From the NCBI GenBank assembly GCA_026983955.1, contig JALSTB010000012.1, positions 1-64,000 on the forward strand: a stretch of DNA of 64,000 nt. The letters run 5' to 3'. Positions 11,449 through 17,771 of this stretch are shown in pieces (within the stretch, counting starts at the first letter, position 1; each line of letters starts with the position of its first letter). The notes beneath the pieces are model-generated. The model was given only the letters and a program-made list of their open reading frames with translations. It ran no database searches and had not been told where the DNA came from. Source of the DNA: Melioribacteraceae bacterium. Its GTDB lineage: Bacteria > Bacteroidota > Ignavibacteria > Ignavibacteriales > Melioribacteraceae. Position numbers and translations under genes: made by a program.

Positions 11449-13881
11449 ATGAAAAAGATATACGCCGGTTTGTTTTTAATTTCGTGCGCCACCTTGTTAT
11501 TAGAATTATCATTGTTAAGAGTATTCGATGTAATTTTATACTCTAACATTTCTTACTTGGTTATCACCTCGGCACTTTTTTGCTTTGGTTTAGCGGGTGT
11601 TTATTCTTCAATTCGGCCTTTGCCGTCTAGAGTATACCTACATAATTATATTTCAAAACTTTCTGCACTTTTTGCTATTTCGGCTATATTAATTCTTCCG
11701 GTAACTAATACTTTGCCGTTCGATTATGGTATGATTTCGAAAGAACCTGTGATGCAATTGTTTTATTTTTTACTTTTATATTTTTTTCTTGCATTGCCTT
11801 TCTTTTTTGCCGGGTTAATGTTTACAACTATTTTTACAATATATGCATTAAAAATTCAAAGATTATATTTCTGGGATTTATTCGGAGCGGCAATAGGTAG
11901 TGCGGTTATCATACCACTCGTGCCTGTTATAGGCCCTGCTGGAAATTTGTTTGTAGTAACTTCTTTTGGGTTATTAGCAGGAGCGCTTTTCAGCATAAAC
12001 TGGAAATACAAATTAACAGGCGTTTTTCTGGCGGTGATTGTTTTTGCCGTGCCTTTCTTAAAATCAGACTATTTTGAATTCACAGTTCATGTTAATAAAA
12101 GAGGAATAAAAACAGCATCGGAGAAAAATTGGATTGAATATACATACTGGGATCCTATTTCAAAAATTGATGTAATTAATCCGCCACACGGTAAATTCAA
12201 ACATATTGCATACGATGGCGGTTCCCAAAGTAGTTTTATTTATCCTTTTGACGGGGATTATAATAAGTTAAGAAATGAATTGCCGGACTCGGTTACAAAA
12301 CATTTTTGGTCGCGCGGCGTAATTGTTTCACATTTTTTAAAGCAAAATGAAAGCTATGATGCATTGATAATAGGCAGTGCGGGTGGCCAAGAGACAAAAG
12401 CCGCACTAACTTTTGGCGCTAAAAGCATTGACGCGGTTGAAATGGTAGGTGCGGTTGTTGATATTGGTAAACACAAATATGCAAAATACAATGGCAATAT
12501 TTTTAATCACCCAAAGGTAACTTGTGTTGTGGAGGAAGGCAGAAGCTTTTTAAGAAGGACAAATAAGAAATATGACATCATCCAAATTTTCAGTAATCAC
12601 ACATCGTCAAGCATTGCTGCCGGCACGGGCGCAATGGCTACAACTTATTTACAAACCGCTGAAGCATACGTGGAATATTTTACTCATTTGAAACCTTCGG
12701 GTATTCTTCATATTAATCACCATGTTTATCCGAAGGAAATTACTACTGCCGCCCTTGCATGGAAAAGTTTGGGATTAAAAGATTTCAAAAAACACGTTAT
12801 TGTATATGAACTGCAAGGGATACAAGATAATCTACCGACTTTGTTGATAAAAATGAGTCCTTGGACGGAAAGTGAATTCCGAAAACTTCAATACTTTTTT
12901 AGTTTGGAAACCGATGAAAAAAAATATAATTGGGTTTATAAACCTGTTGTTAATCCATTTGTAGAACGGGACAATTTTTTAAGTGATGATTTTTTCACGG
13001 GAAATATTCCGGAAGAACTCATTGATAAAATACCTTTTAGAGTAGCTCCATCAACTGACGATAAACCATATTTTAATTTTTTAAGAAAAAAATATAAAGT
13101 TTTAAATGAAGATTCGTCCAGTTACCTCAACCTCTCTACAGCAAGTTTGTTAAATAAACAACTTAAAGGTGGAATTATTCCAGTAGACGTAATCCATCTT
13201 ATTGTTACTGCGGTTCTCTCTGTAATATTTATCTTCTTGTTTGTTTTTATCCCGCTTCGTTTCTCCAACGCCGGGAAATCCGGAAAGTGGTCGGGTAAGA
13301 AGAATACTCTGGTTTATTTCAGTTGTTTAGGTATGGGTTTTATAATTTTAGAACTTGTACTCATTCAAATTTTTATGAAATTAATTGGTTCGCCTCTTTA
13401 CACTTATTCCACAATTGTTTTCGTCCTTCTTGTTGCTGCCGGTTTGGGTAGCTTCTATACAAACAAGTTGAATATTTCTCTCGAAAACCGGTGGTACTTG
13501 CCTTTCGTAGGAATAATTGTAACTAGTGCAGTGCTGTTAATAATACATCCATATATATTTTATTTTTATTTAGCTTCAGATATAATAATTAGAATTCTAG
13601 TGGCAATTATTTTATTAGCTCCCCTCGGATTTTTCCTCGGAATGCCGTTTCCGTTGGGAATATTGGCAACAGAAAAACAACCCATAGGTGCAATTGCATG
13701 GGCGTGGGCAATGAATGGACTCTTTACGGTTGTGGGCGGATTGCTCAGCGTTTTTTTGTCAATTCAATTCGGTTTCCGTATCACCTTGATTATTGCGATA
13801 ATTATTTATGGTATGGCTTTCTTGGTTTTTTCGAGGGTGAGGAATACAGTTGTAGGTCAAATTGAACTCTATAAAACATAA
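11449..13881 (+). CDS. Large membrane protein with spermidine-synthase-like domain
   Basis: An 810-residue protein in three parts: about six membrane helices (residues 1-215), a soluble Rossmann-type methyltransferase domain like spermidine synthase (about 220-560), and six to seven more helices (about 580-800). The cofactor loop reads IIGSAGGQETKAALTFGA, a G-S-A-G-G form where true spermidine synthases have GGGxG. VEMVG follows as the acidic strand. YDIIQIFSNHTSSSIAAGTG stands where the gate-keeping loop (D-x-x-x-D in polyamine enzymes) would be, and has no aspartate pair. So aminopropyl transfer to putrescine is doubtful. Fused membrane/spermidine-synthase proteins are widespread but uncharacterised. 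Composition is more AT-rich than its neighbours. It appears to be a single gene. Confidence 0.85.
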   Translation: MKKIYAGLFLISCATLLLELSLLRVFDVILYSNISYLVITSALFCFGLAGVYSSIRPLPSRVYLHNYISKLSALFAISAILILPVTNTLPFDYGMISKEPVMQLFYFLLLYFFLALPFFFAGLMFTTIFTIYALKIQRLYFWDLFGAAIGSAVIIPLVPVIGPAGNLFVVTSFGLLAGALFSINWKYKLTGVFLAVIVFAVPFLKSDYFEFTVHVNKRGIKTASEKNWIEYTYWDPISKIDVINPPHGKFKHIAYDGGSQSSFIYPFDGDYNKLRNELPDSVTKHFWSRGVIVSHFLKQNESYDALIIGSAGGQETKAALTFGAKSIDAVEMVGAVVDIGKHKYAKYNGNIFNHPKVTCVVEEGRSFLRRTNKKYDIIQIFSNHTSSSIAAGTGAMATTYLQTAEAYVEYFTHLKPSGILHINHHVYPKEITTAALAWKSLGLKDFKKHVIVYELQGIQDNLPTLLIKMSPWTESEFRKLQYFFSLETDEKKYNWVYKPVVNPFVERDNFLSDDFFTGNIPEELIDKIPFRVAPSTDDKPYFNFLRKKYKVLNEDSSSYLNLSTASLLNKQLKGGIIPVDVIHLIVTAVLSVIFIFLFVFIPLRFSNAGKSGKWSGKKNTLVYFSCLGMGFIILELVLIQIFMKLIGSPLYTYSTIVFVLLVAAGLGSFYTNKLNISLENRWYLPFVGIIVTSAVLLIIHPYIFYFYLASDIIIRILVAIILLAPLGFFLGMPFPLGILATEKQPIGAIAWAWAMNGLFTVVGGLLSVFLSIQFGFRITLIIAIIIYGMAFLVFSRVRNTVVGQIELYKT

Positions 13882-13975: not shown

Positions 13976-14026
13976 TAATTTTAGTTATAAGTATGAATTT
14001 GTTCAAAAAAATTGCGGAGTTTTAAA

Positions 14027-15175
14027 ATGAATTTTGAATTAAACGAAGAACAACTAATGATTCAACAAACGGCGCGGGAATTTGCCGAAACGGAAATCGC
14101 ACCATCCACAATTGAACGCGATATTAAAGCGGAATTCCCCACTGAAATTGTAAAAAAATTGGGTGAGCTCGGATTTATGGGAATGATGGTTTCCCCCGAG
14201 TACGGTGGCGCCGGTTTGGATACGGTAAGTTATGTGTTGGCACTGATAGAAATTTCCAAAGTTGATGCCAGCGTTGGAGTAATAATGTCGGTGAATAACT
14301 CGCTTGTCAATTTCGGCTTGGAAAAATGGGGGTCTGAATATATCAAAAAGACTTACTTAACCCCTTTGGCGCAAGGTGAAAAGTTGGGTGCATTTGCCCT
14401 TTCGGAGCCTGAAGCGGGCAGCGATGCAACGCAACAGAGAACAATGGCGGAAAAAGACGGAAAATATTGGGTTCTCAATGGAATTAAGAATTGGATTACA
14501 AACGGAACGTCAGCAGATTATTACATAGTGATGGCACAGACCGATAAAGAAAAACGGCATAAAGGAATCACCGCTTTCCTTGTTGAAAAGGGAACCCCCG
14601 GGTTTGAGCATGGCGTTAAAGAAGACAAATTGGGAATCAGAAGCTCGGATACGTGTTCTCTGACGTTTACCAATTGCCGCGTTCCCGAAGAAAATGTTAT
14701 TTGGGATGTGGGAAAAGGATTTTACTTCGCAATGAATACCCTTAACGGCGGAAGATACGGTATTGCCTCGCAAGCAGTTGGTATTGCAACGGCAGCATAC
14801 GAGAAGGCATTGAAATATTCACTCGAGCGAAAAGCGTTCGGTACCGAAATCTTTAATCATCAGGCAATTCAATTTAAATTATCGGAAATGGCAACCAATG
14901 TGGAAGCCGCACGATTATTAACTTTACAAGCAGCCGCCTTGAAAGATGCCGGAAAGGATTATATAAAACAAGCATCCATGGCTAAATTGTTTGCCAGCGA
15001 AACAGCCGTTAAATGTGCTCTCGAAGCAATTCAAATTCACGGCGGTTACGGTTACGTAAGAGAATATCTGGTTGAAAGATATCTTCGCGATGCCAAAATA
15101 ACAGAGATTTATGAAGGAACTTCGGAAATACAAAAAATTATTATTGCACGCGAAATAATGAAGGAAATCCAATAA
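14027..15175 (+). CDS. Acyl-CoA dehydrogenase (short/medium-chain type)
   Basis: A 382-residue FAD enzyme that oxidises acyl-CoA to trans-2-enoyl-CoA and passes electrons to ETF (etfBA is in this window at 41-42.7 kb). The full family pattern is present: MNFELNEEQLMIQQTAREFA at the start, GAFALSEPEAGSDA and KNWITNGTSADYYIVMAQT for flavin and substrate binding, and IYEGTSEIQKIIIAREI with the catalytic glutamate near the C terminus. I start at ATG 14027, preceded by GCGGAG about 8 bases upstream, rather than the TTG at 14012. Substrate chain length cannot be read from sequence. It stands apart from the fad operon and is followed 20 bases later by the YidD-like gene. Confidence 0.93.
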   Translation: MNFELNEEQLMIQQTAREFAETEIAPSTIERDIKAEFPTEIVKKLGELGFMGMMVSPEYGGAGLDTVSYVLALIEISKVDASVGVIMSVNNSLVNFGLEKWGSEYIKKTYLTPLAQGEKLGAFALSEPEAGSDATQQRTMAEKDGKYWVLNGIKNWITNGTSADYYIVMAQTDKEKRHKGITAFLVEKGTPGFEHGVKEDKLGIRSSDTCSLTFTNCRVPEENVIWDVGKGFYFAMNTLNGGRYGIASQAVGIATAAYEKALKYSLERKAFGTEIFNHQAIQFKLSEMATNVEAARLLTLQAAALKDAGKDYIKQASMAKLFASETAVKCALEAIQIHGGYGYVREYLVERYLRDAKITEIYEGTSEIQKIIIAREIMKEIQ

Positions 15176-15195: not shown

Positions 15196-15651
15196 ATGAA
15201 ATTTAAATTATTACTAATTTTATCATTTGTATATGGAAATTTAATTGCACAAACGGATTGGGAAAGATGGGATGCGGATAATTCCGTTTTTCAACTCAAA
15301 GGAATTCAAGAGAGGGATTATTCACTCGACAAAAGTAATGTTGGTATGATGGCACTTACCGCATTGAGGGACTTGTATTGGTTTGCGTTTTCGGATCTCG
15401 ACGGAGATAATTGTCCGTTTCATCCCACGTGCTCTTCATTTTTTGTCGAAGCGGTAAAAAAAACAAACCTGCTTCAAGGATTGCTAATGTTTGCCGATAG
15501 ATTTACGAGAGACACTAATTTTTTCAAAGGATTTAACCATTACGAAATTGATGAAACCGGAAAATTTTTCGATCCCGTTGATAATTACACTTTAACCGGT
15601 ACATACATCCGTAAGCAATCATACCACAAAAGGAAGTATAAACTTAAATAA
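15196..15651 (+). CDS. Exported YidD-domain protein
   Basis: A 151-residue protein with a Sec signal peptide (MKFKLLLILSFVYGNLIAQ, cleavage likely after Ala18-Gln19). A YidD-like core follows: CPFHPTCSSFFVEAV (Cys73, Cys79) and LLQGLLMFADRF, matching the YidD pattern C-x-x-x-P-T-C-S-x-x-x-x-E-A-x-x...G. Classic YidD is a short cytosolic protein anchored by an amphipathic helix that helps YidC insert membrane proteins. This one appears to be exported and carries a C-terminal extension (about 110-151). It is followed with no gap by two related TPR/membrane proteins, which suggests a shared job at the cell envelope. The domain call is fairly sure; the function is not known. Confidence 0.78.
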   Translation: MKFKLLLILSFVYGNLIAQTDWERWDADNSVFQLKGIQERDYSLDKSNVGMMALTALRDLYWFAFSDLDGDNCPFHPTCSSFFVEAVKKTNLLQGLLMFADRFTRDTNFFKGFNHYEIDETGKFFDPVDNYTLTGTYIRKQSYHKRKYKLK

Positions 15652-16506
15652 TTGAAAATATTAATATATTTCACATATTTTTTACTTTTGCCAATCGTTT
15701 TGTTAGCCCAACCGGCTGAATTGTTTCAACCCGGGAATAGATTGAAATTCGGAAATTATCTTTTTTGCTCGAACGATTATTTACGTGCCATTGACGAATT
15801 CCAAAACTTTTTGAAGTATAAAAAGAATGATACGGTCTTTTTTAAAATAGGTTTGGCATATGAAAAAATGCGGAAATATGATATCGCACAATTGTATTTT
15901 GCATCGTATCCGGAAAAGAATGCTTTTTATCCGGAAGCCCGGCTTGAATTTCATAAATTATTTTTTTTGAAAAAAGAATTTTCCGCACTGAGAGAAAACG
16001 TTGCTCGAACCGGAAAAAATTTTGAATACTATCCTGAAATAAAAAGGTTAAGCTACATCAGTTACTTGTTCGATGATACGGATTTACCCGATTCAAATAA
16101 TTTCAAACTCTGGTTTAATAATTCCGGACAAAAGAAAATTATCCGTTACTACAGAATAAAACTGAATTTACCACAAAAAAGTTTAACTGTTGCCGGAATG
16201 CTTTCGGCGGTGATTCCGGGCTTGGGAAAAATTTATGCCGGCGAAACTGGCGATGGAATAACCGCTTTAATTGTCAACGGGCTTCTCGGCTTTTTGGCCT
16301 ATGATAATTTCCGTGCCGGTCATAAATTCAGAGGTTGGTTGTTTTCGGGACTTACCGCATTCTTTTATGCAGGGAATATTTACGGCTCGGTTGCAGCTGC
16401 TCAAATTTATAATAATAAAATCAAAACCGGTTACAAGCAAGAACTGGAAATGTTTTTGGAACGGGAAAATTATTTTTTACCGGATTACAAAAATTTATGT
16501 AAATGA
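15652..16506 (+). CDS. TPR protein with C-terminal membrane domain (first of pair)
   Basis: A 284-residue protein starting at a TTG directly after the YidD-like stop codon (no ATG fits the signal peptide MKILIYFTYFLLLPIVLLAQ). Residues 25-125 form TPR-like helices (DYLRAIDEFQNFLKY, KIGLAYEKMRKYDIAQLYF). Residues about 180-265 form a membrane domain with the signature AGMLSAVIPGLGKIYAGETG, which recalls the P-G-x-G-x-x-Y-x-G motif of TM2/DUF5683-like domains. The protein therefore seems to have a periplasmic repeat domain joined to an inner-membrane hairpin domain. The next gene has the same plan, so the two are probably ancient duplicates. No function is known to me. Confidence 0.72.
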   Translation: MKILIYFTYFLLLPIVLLAQPAELFQPGNRLKFGNYLFCSNDYLRAIDEFQNFLKYKKNDTVFFKIGLAYEKMRKYDIAQLYFASYPEKNAFYPEARLEFHKLFFLKKEFSALRENVARTGKNFEYYPEIKRLSYISYLFDDTDLPDSNNFKLWFNNSGQKKIIRYYRIKLNLPQKSLTVAGMLSAVIPGLGKIYAGETGDGITALIVNGLLGFLAYDNFRAGHKFRGWLFSGLTAFFYAGNIYGSVAAAQIYNNKIKTGYKQELEMFLERENYFLPDYKNLCK

Positions 16507-16509
16507 GTA

Positions 16510-17346
16510 ATGAATAAAAATTTAATAATTATAATTATAATAAGTTTGACGGCTTTTAATTTACCGGCACAAACCAATCTCCGCTGGCAAGCGGCATATG
16601 CGGATTCTTTGTTTGCTTCGGCACAATATTTTGATGCAATTACCGAGTATAAACGCTTGCTTTTCTTTGACAAGGAAAATAAATATTCGTTTTCCGGAAA
16701 TTATAAAATAGGGCTATCTTACAAGAAAGGCGGTAAATTTGACGATGCAATAAAATATTTCAGATTGGCTGAAAAGAATGCAAAACGTGATTCCGGAAAA
16801 CTCAAAGCGAAGTTTCAAATTATAAGAACCAATATTTTAAGGGGTACAACGGAAATTGCTCTGAATCATCTGAGGCAATTGGCAAAGGAATTAAACGATT
16901 CTCTATCACTGAAAAAAATCCGGTATTGGAAAGGCTGGGCGTTTATGTTTTCGGACAAATGGGATTCCGCAAAAGCCGAATTCACCCGGATTAATCCAAA
17001 CCATGAGTTGATAAAAATTTGTGACAATGTGATAAATCAAAAATATTCCGTAACTTTTGCCAAACTATTTTCTTATATTTTACCCGGAGCAGGTCAATTT
17101 TATACCGGACATTATCTTTCGGGATTGATGTCGCTTGGTATGAATGTTTTATGGGGTTATTTTACGGTAAAGGCTTTCATCGCCGATAGGGTTTTTGACG
17201 GAATAGTTACCGGAAATTTGTTATGGTTCAGGTTTTACAGGGGAAATTTTCAAAATGCAGAAAAATTTGCGCTGCAAAAAAATATCGAAATTGCTAACGA
17301 AGCTTTAAGGAAAATACAATTAGAATATAAAGGAGAAAAACCGTGA
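16510..17346 (+). CDS. TPR protein with C-terminal membrane domain (second of pair)
   Basis: A 278-residue protein with signal peptide MNKNLIIIIIISLTAFNLPAQ. TPR-like repeats follow (YFDAITEYKRLLFFDKENKY, YKIGLSYKKGGKFDDAIKYF), then a membrane segment near residues 180-245 with SYILPGAGQFYTGHYLSGL. This repeats the layout of the gene 4 bases upstream: a P-G-x-G-x-x-Y-x-G motif followed by hydrophobic helices. Sequence identity is low but the order of parts is the same. Its stop codon overlaps the GTG start of the ACT-domain gene (GTGA), so the run continues. An envelope role together with the YidD-like protein is inferred. Confidence 0.72.
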   Translation: MNKNLIIIIIISLTAFNLPAQTNLRWQAAYADSLFASAQYFDAITEYKRLLFFDKENKYSFSGNYKIGLSYKKGGKFDDAIKYFRLAEKNAKRDSGKLKAKFQIIRTNILRGTTEIALNHLRQLAKELNDSLSLKKIRYWKGWAFMFSDKWDSAKAEFTRINPNHELIKICDNVINQKYSVTFAKLFSYILPGAGQFYTGHYLSGLMSLGMNVLWGYFTVKAFIADRVFDGIVTGNLLWFRFYRGNFQNAEKFALQKNIEIANEALRKIQLEYKGEKP

Positions 17347-17771
17347 GTCTTTCCGAAAGTGAGTTAAGAAAAATTACTTTGGAAGCAATCGAGGAATTGG
17401 GCGAAAATGCAACACCGCAACTTGTAAAAGAAGTTGTTGAAAAAGCAGTTAGAAAATTGGAAGGTGAGGAACAACGGCCTGAAAAAACATCGTCCGATTC
17501 TGGACGTGTAATCCTTACTTCGTTCGGAATGAATCATCCCGGAATTGTTGCCGGAATTACAAAAGCATTGTATGAAGCAGGGTGCGATATTCTCGATATC
17601 AGTCAAAAAATTTTATCCGATTTCTATACAATGATGATGGTTGTCAATATCAGTTCATCGAAACAAGGGTTGAGAGAGCTGCAGGAAACAATGAACAAAG
17701 TAGCGGATGATCTTAAAGTTAAAATTTACATTCAGCATGAAGATGTGTTCAGATATATGCACCGTGTATAA
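17343..17771 (+). CDS. ACT-domain protein, UPF0237 type, with N-terminal helical extension
   Basis: Residues 55-142 form an ACT domain of the UPF0237 group: VILTSFGMNHPGIVAGITKALYEAG and ILDISQKILSDFYTMMMVV are close to the family pattern. ACT domains bind small ligands, often amino acids, and control a partner. Residues 1-50 are an extra charged helical part not found in the shortest family members. The start is a GTG that overlaps the previous stop. The next gene, 16 bases on, encodes the UPF0210 protein, the usual partner of this ACT family in many bacteria. Ligand and role are unknown. Confidence 0.88.
   Translation: MSLSESELRKITLEAIEELGENATPQLVKEVVEKAVRKLEGEEQRPEKTSSDSGRVILTSFGMNHPGIVAGITKALYEAGCDILDISQKILSDFYTMMMVVNISSSKQGLRELQETMNKVADDLKVKIYIQHEDVFRYMHRV

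What the first reader, a model, noticed from the sequence alone, without database searches (positions are those of the whole stretch)
15196..17346. Exported YidD-like protein joined to two duplicated TPR/membrane proteins
The YidD core (Cys73, Cys79) follows a signal peptide, unlike the cytosolic YidD that helps YidC. The next two genes, packed with 0-4 base gaps, each have a signal peptide, TPR repeats and a membrane part with P-G-x-G-x-x-Y-x-G. This looks like a three-part envelope module, perhaps for membrane protein or lipoprotein handling on the periplasmic side. I know of no description of it.
Basis: partly seen in the sequence, partly recalled or inferred. Interest (0 to 1): 0.57.

Follow-up and report, generated by a model that had tools for sequence, protein, structure and literature searches.

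The report
Exported YidD-TPR envelope module
A relative of YidD, a small protein known for helping membrane-protein insertion from inside the cell, has here acquired an export signal and travels as a block, sometimes as a single fused protein, with TPR-containing membrane proteins, which points to an undescribed module working on the outer face of the inner membrane.

Summary
Window 15196-17346 encodes an exported YidD-domain protein (Y) and two paralogous signal peptide + TPR + PGxGxxYxG membrane proteins (T1, T2), with 0 and 3 bases between them. The genome also has a standard yidD between rnpA and yidC. The block is not local synteny: in 80 named relatives T1 follows Y in 77 of 77 loci with room; Y-T pairs recur in unrelated contexts in at least three classes of the phylum; four genomes carry one fused Y-T polypeptide. 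In 60 genomes tested, full-length T occurs in 20 of 20 with exported Y and 0 of 40 without. Three order members lacking Y also lack T1 and T2 at the syntenic site. An alanine-glutamine cleavage site is nearly invariant. 'Lipoprotein handling' has only suggestive support: a second lspA inside the operon in three genomes, a possibly LolA-like gene upstream in five loci, a PEGA-type lipoprotein upstream in six. Activity unknown. New variant of a known family; not found in the papers searched.

The parts
15196..15651 (+). Y: exported YidD-domain protein, 151 aa
   Evidence: PF01809 40.7 bits and TIGR00278 49.7 bits, both over cut-off
15196..15249 (+). signal peptide of Y (residues 1-18), predicted cleavage before Gln19
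   Evidence: Gln19 invariant in 29 of 29 order-type rows; small-x-small|Gln in 52 of 54 rows; Q-rule paper passages
15358..15531 (+). YidD core of Y with Cys73 and Cys79; the third cysteine of standard YidD is Asp106 here
15652..16506 (+). T1: signal peptide, TPR domain, C-terminal membrane hairpin (284 aa)
   Evidence: AlphaFold2 model pLDDT 93.7, pTM 0.79; sub-threshold TPR, TM2 and DUF5683 matches
16216..16242 (+). PGLGKIYAG motif of T1, between two short half-helices of the model
   Evidence: sequence; P189, G190, G192, Y195 invariant in 49 rows; helices 178-187 and 191-195
16510..17346 (+). T2: paralogue of T1 (278 aa), TPR plus membrane part
   Evidence: TPR_6 26.5 bits (cut-off 26.3), DUF5683 sub-threshold; homologous to T1
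17083..17109 (+). PGAGQFYTG motif of T2
   Evidence: sequence
14012..15175 (+). acyl-CoA dehydrogenase, conserved upstream neighbour in the order, not part of the core module
   Evidence: PF00441, PF02770, PF02771; upstream in 62 of 70 loci with room; absent beside Y-T in most loci outside the order
17343..17771 (+). ACT-domain protein, downstream neighbour overlapping T2 by 4 bases
   Evidence: PF13740; directly after T2 in 39 of 68 loci with room

Best explanation
Y, T1 and T2 form one periplasm-facing module of the inner membrane. Y is exported by Sec and cut by signal peptidase I; its YidD core then lies on the periplasmic face, opposite to standard YidD. T1 and T2 expose a TPR domain to the periplasm and are held in the membrane by a C-terminal hairpin. 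They bind Y (in four genomes Y and T are the same polypeptide) and bring it to a client at the membrane, such as a newly exported protein leaving Sec/YidC. The most likely clients are lipoprotein precursors or lipoproteins waiting for the Lol carrier. Shown here by sequence: domain content, signal peptides, linkage, fusion, co-occurrence, joint absence. Inferred: the complex, the sidedness, the chaperone- or insertion-like activity. Weakest step: that the clients are lipoproteins.
For: Four natural Y-T fusions (L165, L210, L211, L212). T found in 20 of 20 genomes with exported Y, 0 of 40 without. No Y, T1 or T2 at the syntenic site in G007, G041, G587. Y-T1 in 77 of 77 and T1-T2 in 71 of 72 loci with room, median gap -4 and 0 bases. 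Y-T in new contexts in the class and in other classes. Export signal (paper passages). T1 model: TPR helices 22-171, two short half-helices around PGxG, helix 199-221, long helix 225-272; the loop after the half-helices is acidic (mean charge -1.9) and the loop between the two long helices slightly basic (+0.6, range -2 to 4). Lipoprotein hints: lspA between Y and T1 in 3 same-genus genomes; weakly LolA-like gene directly before Y in L163, L164, L213, L223 and L263; PEGA lipoprotein before Y in six loci.
Against: The LolA likeness is sub-threshold (best NCBIfam E 0.0024; hhalign probability 48% to true LolA over 45 columns). The lspA insertion is probably one event in one genus and absent from the window species. 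No lipoprotein gene was recognised beside the order-type module. The charge difference between the T1 loops is small. Both YidD and DUF5683-like functions are poorly known, so the activity cannot be read off. In G054 Y and T1 are unlinked.
Confidence: 0.4

Rival explanations
1. A general periplasmic folding or insertion aid for inner-membrane or outer-membrane proteins (a trans-side partner of Sec/YidC, or TPR scaffolding of BamD or YfgM type), with no special link to lipoproteins.
For: Relationship to YidD, described as an insertion efficiency factor (PMC8082313 table entry; PMC3573977 passages). T1's TPR domain aligns with BamD (Z 12.2, rmsd 2.5, 123 residues) and YfgM in the PpiD-YfgM complex (Z 10.5, rmsd 4.8, 150 residues), but in a tie with many unrelated TPR proteins. 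Vertical conservation in the order.
Against: Does not explain the lspA, LolA-like and PEGA-lipoprotein neighbours.
Confidence: 0.33
2. A secreted membrane-active (haemolysin-like) protein Y with T1/T2 as immunity or export proteins.
For: PF01809 was once named a haemolytic domain because of B. subtilis YtjA (PMC3573977 passages). Y is exported.
Against: Two or more YidD copies in 55 of 59 genomes of the order with conserved synteny, unlike a variable toxin locus; T is fused to Y in four genomes; no PADLOC match; no nearby toxin-delivery genes were recognised by eye in the loci read.
Confidence: 0.05
3. Only neighbouring genes kept together by slow genome rearrangement, with no joint function.
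For: The surrounding gene order (acyl-CoA dehydrogenase to LemA) is itself conserved in Ignavibacteriales.
Against: Y-T pairs in unrelated contexts, four fusions, 20/20 against 0/40 co-occurrence, joint absence at the syntenic site.
Confidence: 0.03
4. The N-terminal helix of Y is an uncleaved anchor and the YidD core stays in the cytosol like standard YidD.
For: No experiment here; other second YidD copies (L219, L221) have an N-terminal hydrophobic anchor and no visible cleavage site by eye.
Against: Small-x-small|Gln in 52 of 54 Y rows matching the Q-rule; in the fusions the same start precedes both Y and T.
Confidence: 0.07

Closest known systems
YidD (PF01809, TIGR00278), membrane protein insertion efficiency factor
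   Same: Core family match over both curated cut-offs; C-x5-C-S, an Arg near the end of the core and a later Asp-Pro retained
   Different: Signal peptide, about 150 aa instead of about 70, third Cys replaced by Asp in the order type, not beside rnpA/yidC, tied to TPR membrane proteins; grouped apart from standard YidD in a weakly supported tree
DUF5683 (PF18935) and TM2 (PF05154) membrane domains
   Same: PGxGxxYxG with following hydrophobic helices; sub-threshold Pfam matches
   Different: Below the curated cut-offs; preceded by a TPR domain and tied to exported YidD
Periplasmic TPR proteins BamD and YfgM
   Same: TPR fold of T1 (BamD 3qky Z 12.2, YfgM 8zht Z 10.5)
   Different: T1 has a C-terminal membrane hairpin; the structural matches are tied with many unrelated TPR proteins
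LolA, outer-membrane lipoprotein carrier (upstream gene in five loci only)
   Same: Best though weak NCBIfam matches are LolA models in three of three proteins scanned
   Different: Far below cut-offs; each of the four genomes tested that carry the gene (G163, G184, G513, G603) also has a better LolA elsewhere

Membership tests
YidD (PF01809 / TIGR00278) | profile match over curated cut-off | tested here: met
   40.7 bits (cut-off 27) and 49.7 bits (cut-off 40)
YidD (PF01809 / TIGR00278) | C-x5-C-S pair of the core | tested here: met
   Cys73 and Cys79 invariant in 54 rows
YidD (PF01809 / TIGR00278) | third cysteine (R-C) of the core (motif recalled, and seen in the standard copy) | tested here: not met
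   Asp106 invariant in 29 of 29 order-type rows; the Cys is present in several copies outside the order
standard YidD orthologue | cytosolic, no signal peptide | tested here: not met
   predicted signal peptide and cleavage site; location itself not testable here
standard YidD orthologue | gene between rnpA and yidC | tested here: not met
   that place is held by another copy
DUF5683 (PF18935) | match over curated cut-off 26.7 | tested here: not met
   best 23.8 bits in relatives, 13-15 bits in the window T proteins
TPR proteins | TPR repeats | tested here: met
   TPR_6 26.5 bits over its cut-off in T2; T1 model aligns with TPR structures up to Z 12.5
LolA (upstream gene in five loci) | match over curated cut-off | tested here: not met
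   13.6 bits vs 23.6; NCBIfam 13.8-17.3 vs 112-120; hhalign 48%
lspA between Y and T1 in the sister species | TIGR00077 cut-off | tested here: met
   87.5 and 86.3 bits vs 73.95 for two of the three copies; all three match PF01252 over its cut-off

The most novel reading that the evidence does not exclude
Bacteroidota-type bacteria possess a second, periplasmic YidD machine: an exported YidD core carried by TPR/re-entrant-hairpin membrane proteins that receives lipoprotein precursors as they leave the translocon and hands them to LspA and a LolA-like carrier. This would mean that the YidD core acts on the membrane surface itself and can work from either side.
Probability: 0.22. Interest if true: 0.78.

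Novelty: new variant of a known kind. Interest (0 to 1): 0.6.

Why it matters
YidD is found in most bacteria yet its activity is unclear. A version that has moved to the other side of the membrane and is fused to its partner gives a handle on what the core does: a Y-T fusion is a single protein that can be purified. It also marks an undescribed envelope module conserved in nearly a whole bacterial order and scattered through the phylum, in genomes where the TIGR00278 model would name it simply a second membrane protein insertion efficiency factor.

Tried and rejected
A combined alignment of fusions with separate Y and T rows (A2) put TPR stretches on the YidD core and was not used. Fold search of the Y model (pLDDT 81.6, pTM 0.59) found nothing: best E 5.8, best Z 3.5; no PDB chain matches standard YidD and only one unconvincing chain (E 0.31) matches the Y profile. 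T1's membrane part was not searched alone, so no statement is made on its fold. PADLOC gave no match. Literature: nothing; no description of an exported YidD in the listings; DUF5683 only in an unrelated nematode paper; one unrelated paper each in the listings. The main YidD paper (PMC3187451) is not held, so its content is recalled or taken from the two citing papers. A toxin-immunity reading and a mere-synteny reading were considered and put low.

Rows dropped or against: second YidD copies without T were found in G424, G497, G527, G325, the third copy of G047, and in G080, G134, G145, G248, G266, G289, G311, G381 (for the last eight only about 1.5 kb each side was looked at); none shows the Ala-Gln signal peptide by eye. 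G473's second hit lies at a contig end with an internal stop; G307's second hit is under the cut-off. L056 has T2 2.7 kb from T1. L094 has T1 in two pieces. G054 has Y and T1 unlinked. Six of 68 loci have neither ACT nor LemA directly after T2.

Full report
What is there. Y, T1 and T2 lie at 15196-15651, 15652-16506 and 16510-17346 on the + strand. Y passes the curated cut-offs of both YidD models. T1 and T2 each carry a TPR stretch and a PGxGxxYxG membrane segment with sub-threshold similarity to DUF5683 or TM2, and they are paralogues.

Standard copy. The same genome has a 71-aa YidD (114.9 bits) between rnpA and yidC. Y is therefore an additional protein. In the order, 55 of 59 sampled genomes have two or more YidD matches; in the rest of the class, 14 of 235; in other classes of the phylum, 13 of 297.

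Export. All 54 Y rows have a strongly hydrophobic N-terminus and 52 have a small-x-small|Gln site; for T1 the numbers are 49 of 49 and 41 of 49 (a simple home-made rule, not SignalP). Gln19 of Y and Gln20 of T1 are nearly invariant. In Ignavibacterium album 77% of predicted signal-peptidase-I substrates begin with Gln (PMC5837995, passages read). Location itself is not tested.

Conservation of the block. In the 80 named loci, T1 follows Y in 77 of 77 with room (70 within 10 bases, median -4) and T2 follows T1 in 71 of 72 (median 0); an acyl-CoA dehydrogenase lies upstream in 62 of 70 and an ACT gene overlaps T2 by 4 bases in 39 of 68. Since this neighbourhood is conserved as a whole in the order, it alone proves little.

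Independence from synteny. Of the 14 class genomes outside the order with a second YidD, 11 have an exported Y with T (G159, G163, G184, G268, G442, G456, G493, G502, G513, G544, G553) and three do not (G424, G473, G497). G456 keeps the order-type neighbourhood; the others do not. Three genomes of other classes have it: G063, G232 with Y-T1-T2 and G271 with Y-T. In G159, G442, G544 and G502 Y and T are one polypeptide, in frames of 398-443 aa, with one N-terminal signal. G603 has two sets, one in each style.

Co-occurrence. A T1 profile was run on 60 chosen genomes: all class genomes then known to have exported Y outside the order, seven from the order plus G054, one from another class, order members without Y, and a set of class genomes without it. 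Full-length T (E at most 2.5e-23) was found in 20 of 20 with exported Y and 0 of 40 without (best E 3.8e-11, TPR part only). The genomes are related, so this is not a p-value. In the order members G007, G041 and G587 the dehydrogenase is followed by ACT or LemA about 150, 40 and 350 bases on, with no Y, T1 or T2 between; G043 has no synteny there. G007 is 88% complete. G054 has Y and T1 on different contigs.

Origin. On 87 columns, 22 of 23 exported Y fall together apart from the 17 standard copies, with weak support (74/99); one clade is not rejected (AU p 0.41). This fits one ancient export event but does not show it.

Structure. T1 is predicted with high confidence (pLDDT 93.7): TPR helices to residue 171, two half-helices (178-187, 191-195) around PGxG, a helix at 199-221 and a long helix at 225-272. 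The loop after the half-helices is acidic and the next loop slightly basic, which by the positive-inside rule (recalled) suggests that the half-helices form a re-entrant turn and the two long helices a hairpin, with TPR and C-terminus in the periplasm; the charge difference is small. TPR matches include BamD and YfgM but are tied with many others. The Y model gave no fold match.

Hints to function. (a) In G001, G002 and G003, sister species of the window genome, an lspA gene (signal peptidase II) sits between Y and T1; it is a second copy, the window genome having one elsewhere. (b) In L163, L164, L213, L223 and L263 a homologous 230-250 aa exported protein lies directly before Y; in L263 it matches the other four at 96% hhalign probability. 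Its best NCBIfam matches are LolA models, below cut-off, and its profile match to true LolA is weak. In four of these it is preceded by a small exported protein (about 135 aa) of unknown family. (c) In L165, L210, L211, L214, L215 and L217 a PEGA-type lipoprotein lies directly before Y or the fusion: over the Pfam cut-off in L165, L210, L211, L215; just below in L217; in L214 recognised by sequence. Three different lipoprotein-type neighbours in three settings suggest lipoprotein traffic. Each is weak alone, and adjacency was not tested against a background of neighbours.

Mechanism proposed. Y keeps the family core (Cys pair, an Arg, a later Asp-Pro; [quoted passage not shown] PMC8082313 table entry). 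Carried by T1/T2 it would act on the periplasmic face on proteins emerging from Sec/YidC. That lipoproteins are the main clients is a minority guess (about 0.3 to 0.4).

Novelty. Eight literature searches over open-licence papers listed no exported YidD or Y-T module; subscription papers were not covered. The exported protein is a member of the YidD sequence family but not of the standard orthologue group.

Noticed in passing
L034:2707-3294 (+), L035:7783-8289 (-), L033 between Y and T1: A second lspA gene lies inside the Y-T1-T2 block in three same-genus genomes but not in the window species.
   Followed up: partly
L165, L210, L211, L214, L215, L217, directly upstream of Y: A PEGA-type lipoprotein repeatedly precedes exported YidD.
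   Followed up: partly
L163:1456-1869, L164:8614-9015, L213:4497-4898, L223:6287-6676: A small exported protein (about 135 aa) of no known family precedes the possibly LolA-like gene; it may be a further module member.
   Followed up: no
L219:6829-7128, L221:349-639: Another kind of second YidD with an N-terminal hydrophobic anchor and no T partner, in family f15.
   Followed up: no
L252-L261: Further second YidD-like copies in other classes (families f27, f30, f32), without signal peptide by eye and without T nearby.
   Followed up: partly
L037, L038, L044, L047 and others, between the acyl-CoA dehydrogenase and Y: A small gene of about 92 aa (resembles DUF2442, recalled) is often inserted directly before Y; in L052 and L058 a pair resembling HEPN/MNT genes (recalled) sits there.
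   Followed up: no
G054 (L168, L226): Only the exported YidD was found in this genome; no standard copy was detected, perhaps an assembly gap, and its T1 is unlinked beside genes that look like lepA and lepB (recalled).
   Followed up: partly
L263:4447-4899 (+): A 150-aa protein that looks like a TM2-domain protein (by eye) lies next to the module in G232.
   Followed up: no
window 11449-13881: An 810-aa membrane protein with a spermidine-synthase domain (PF01564) upstream; not studied.
   Followed up: no
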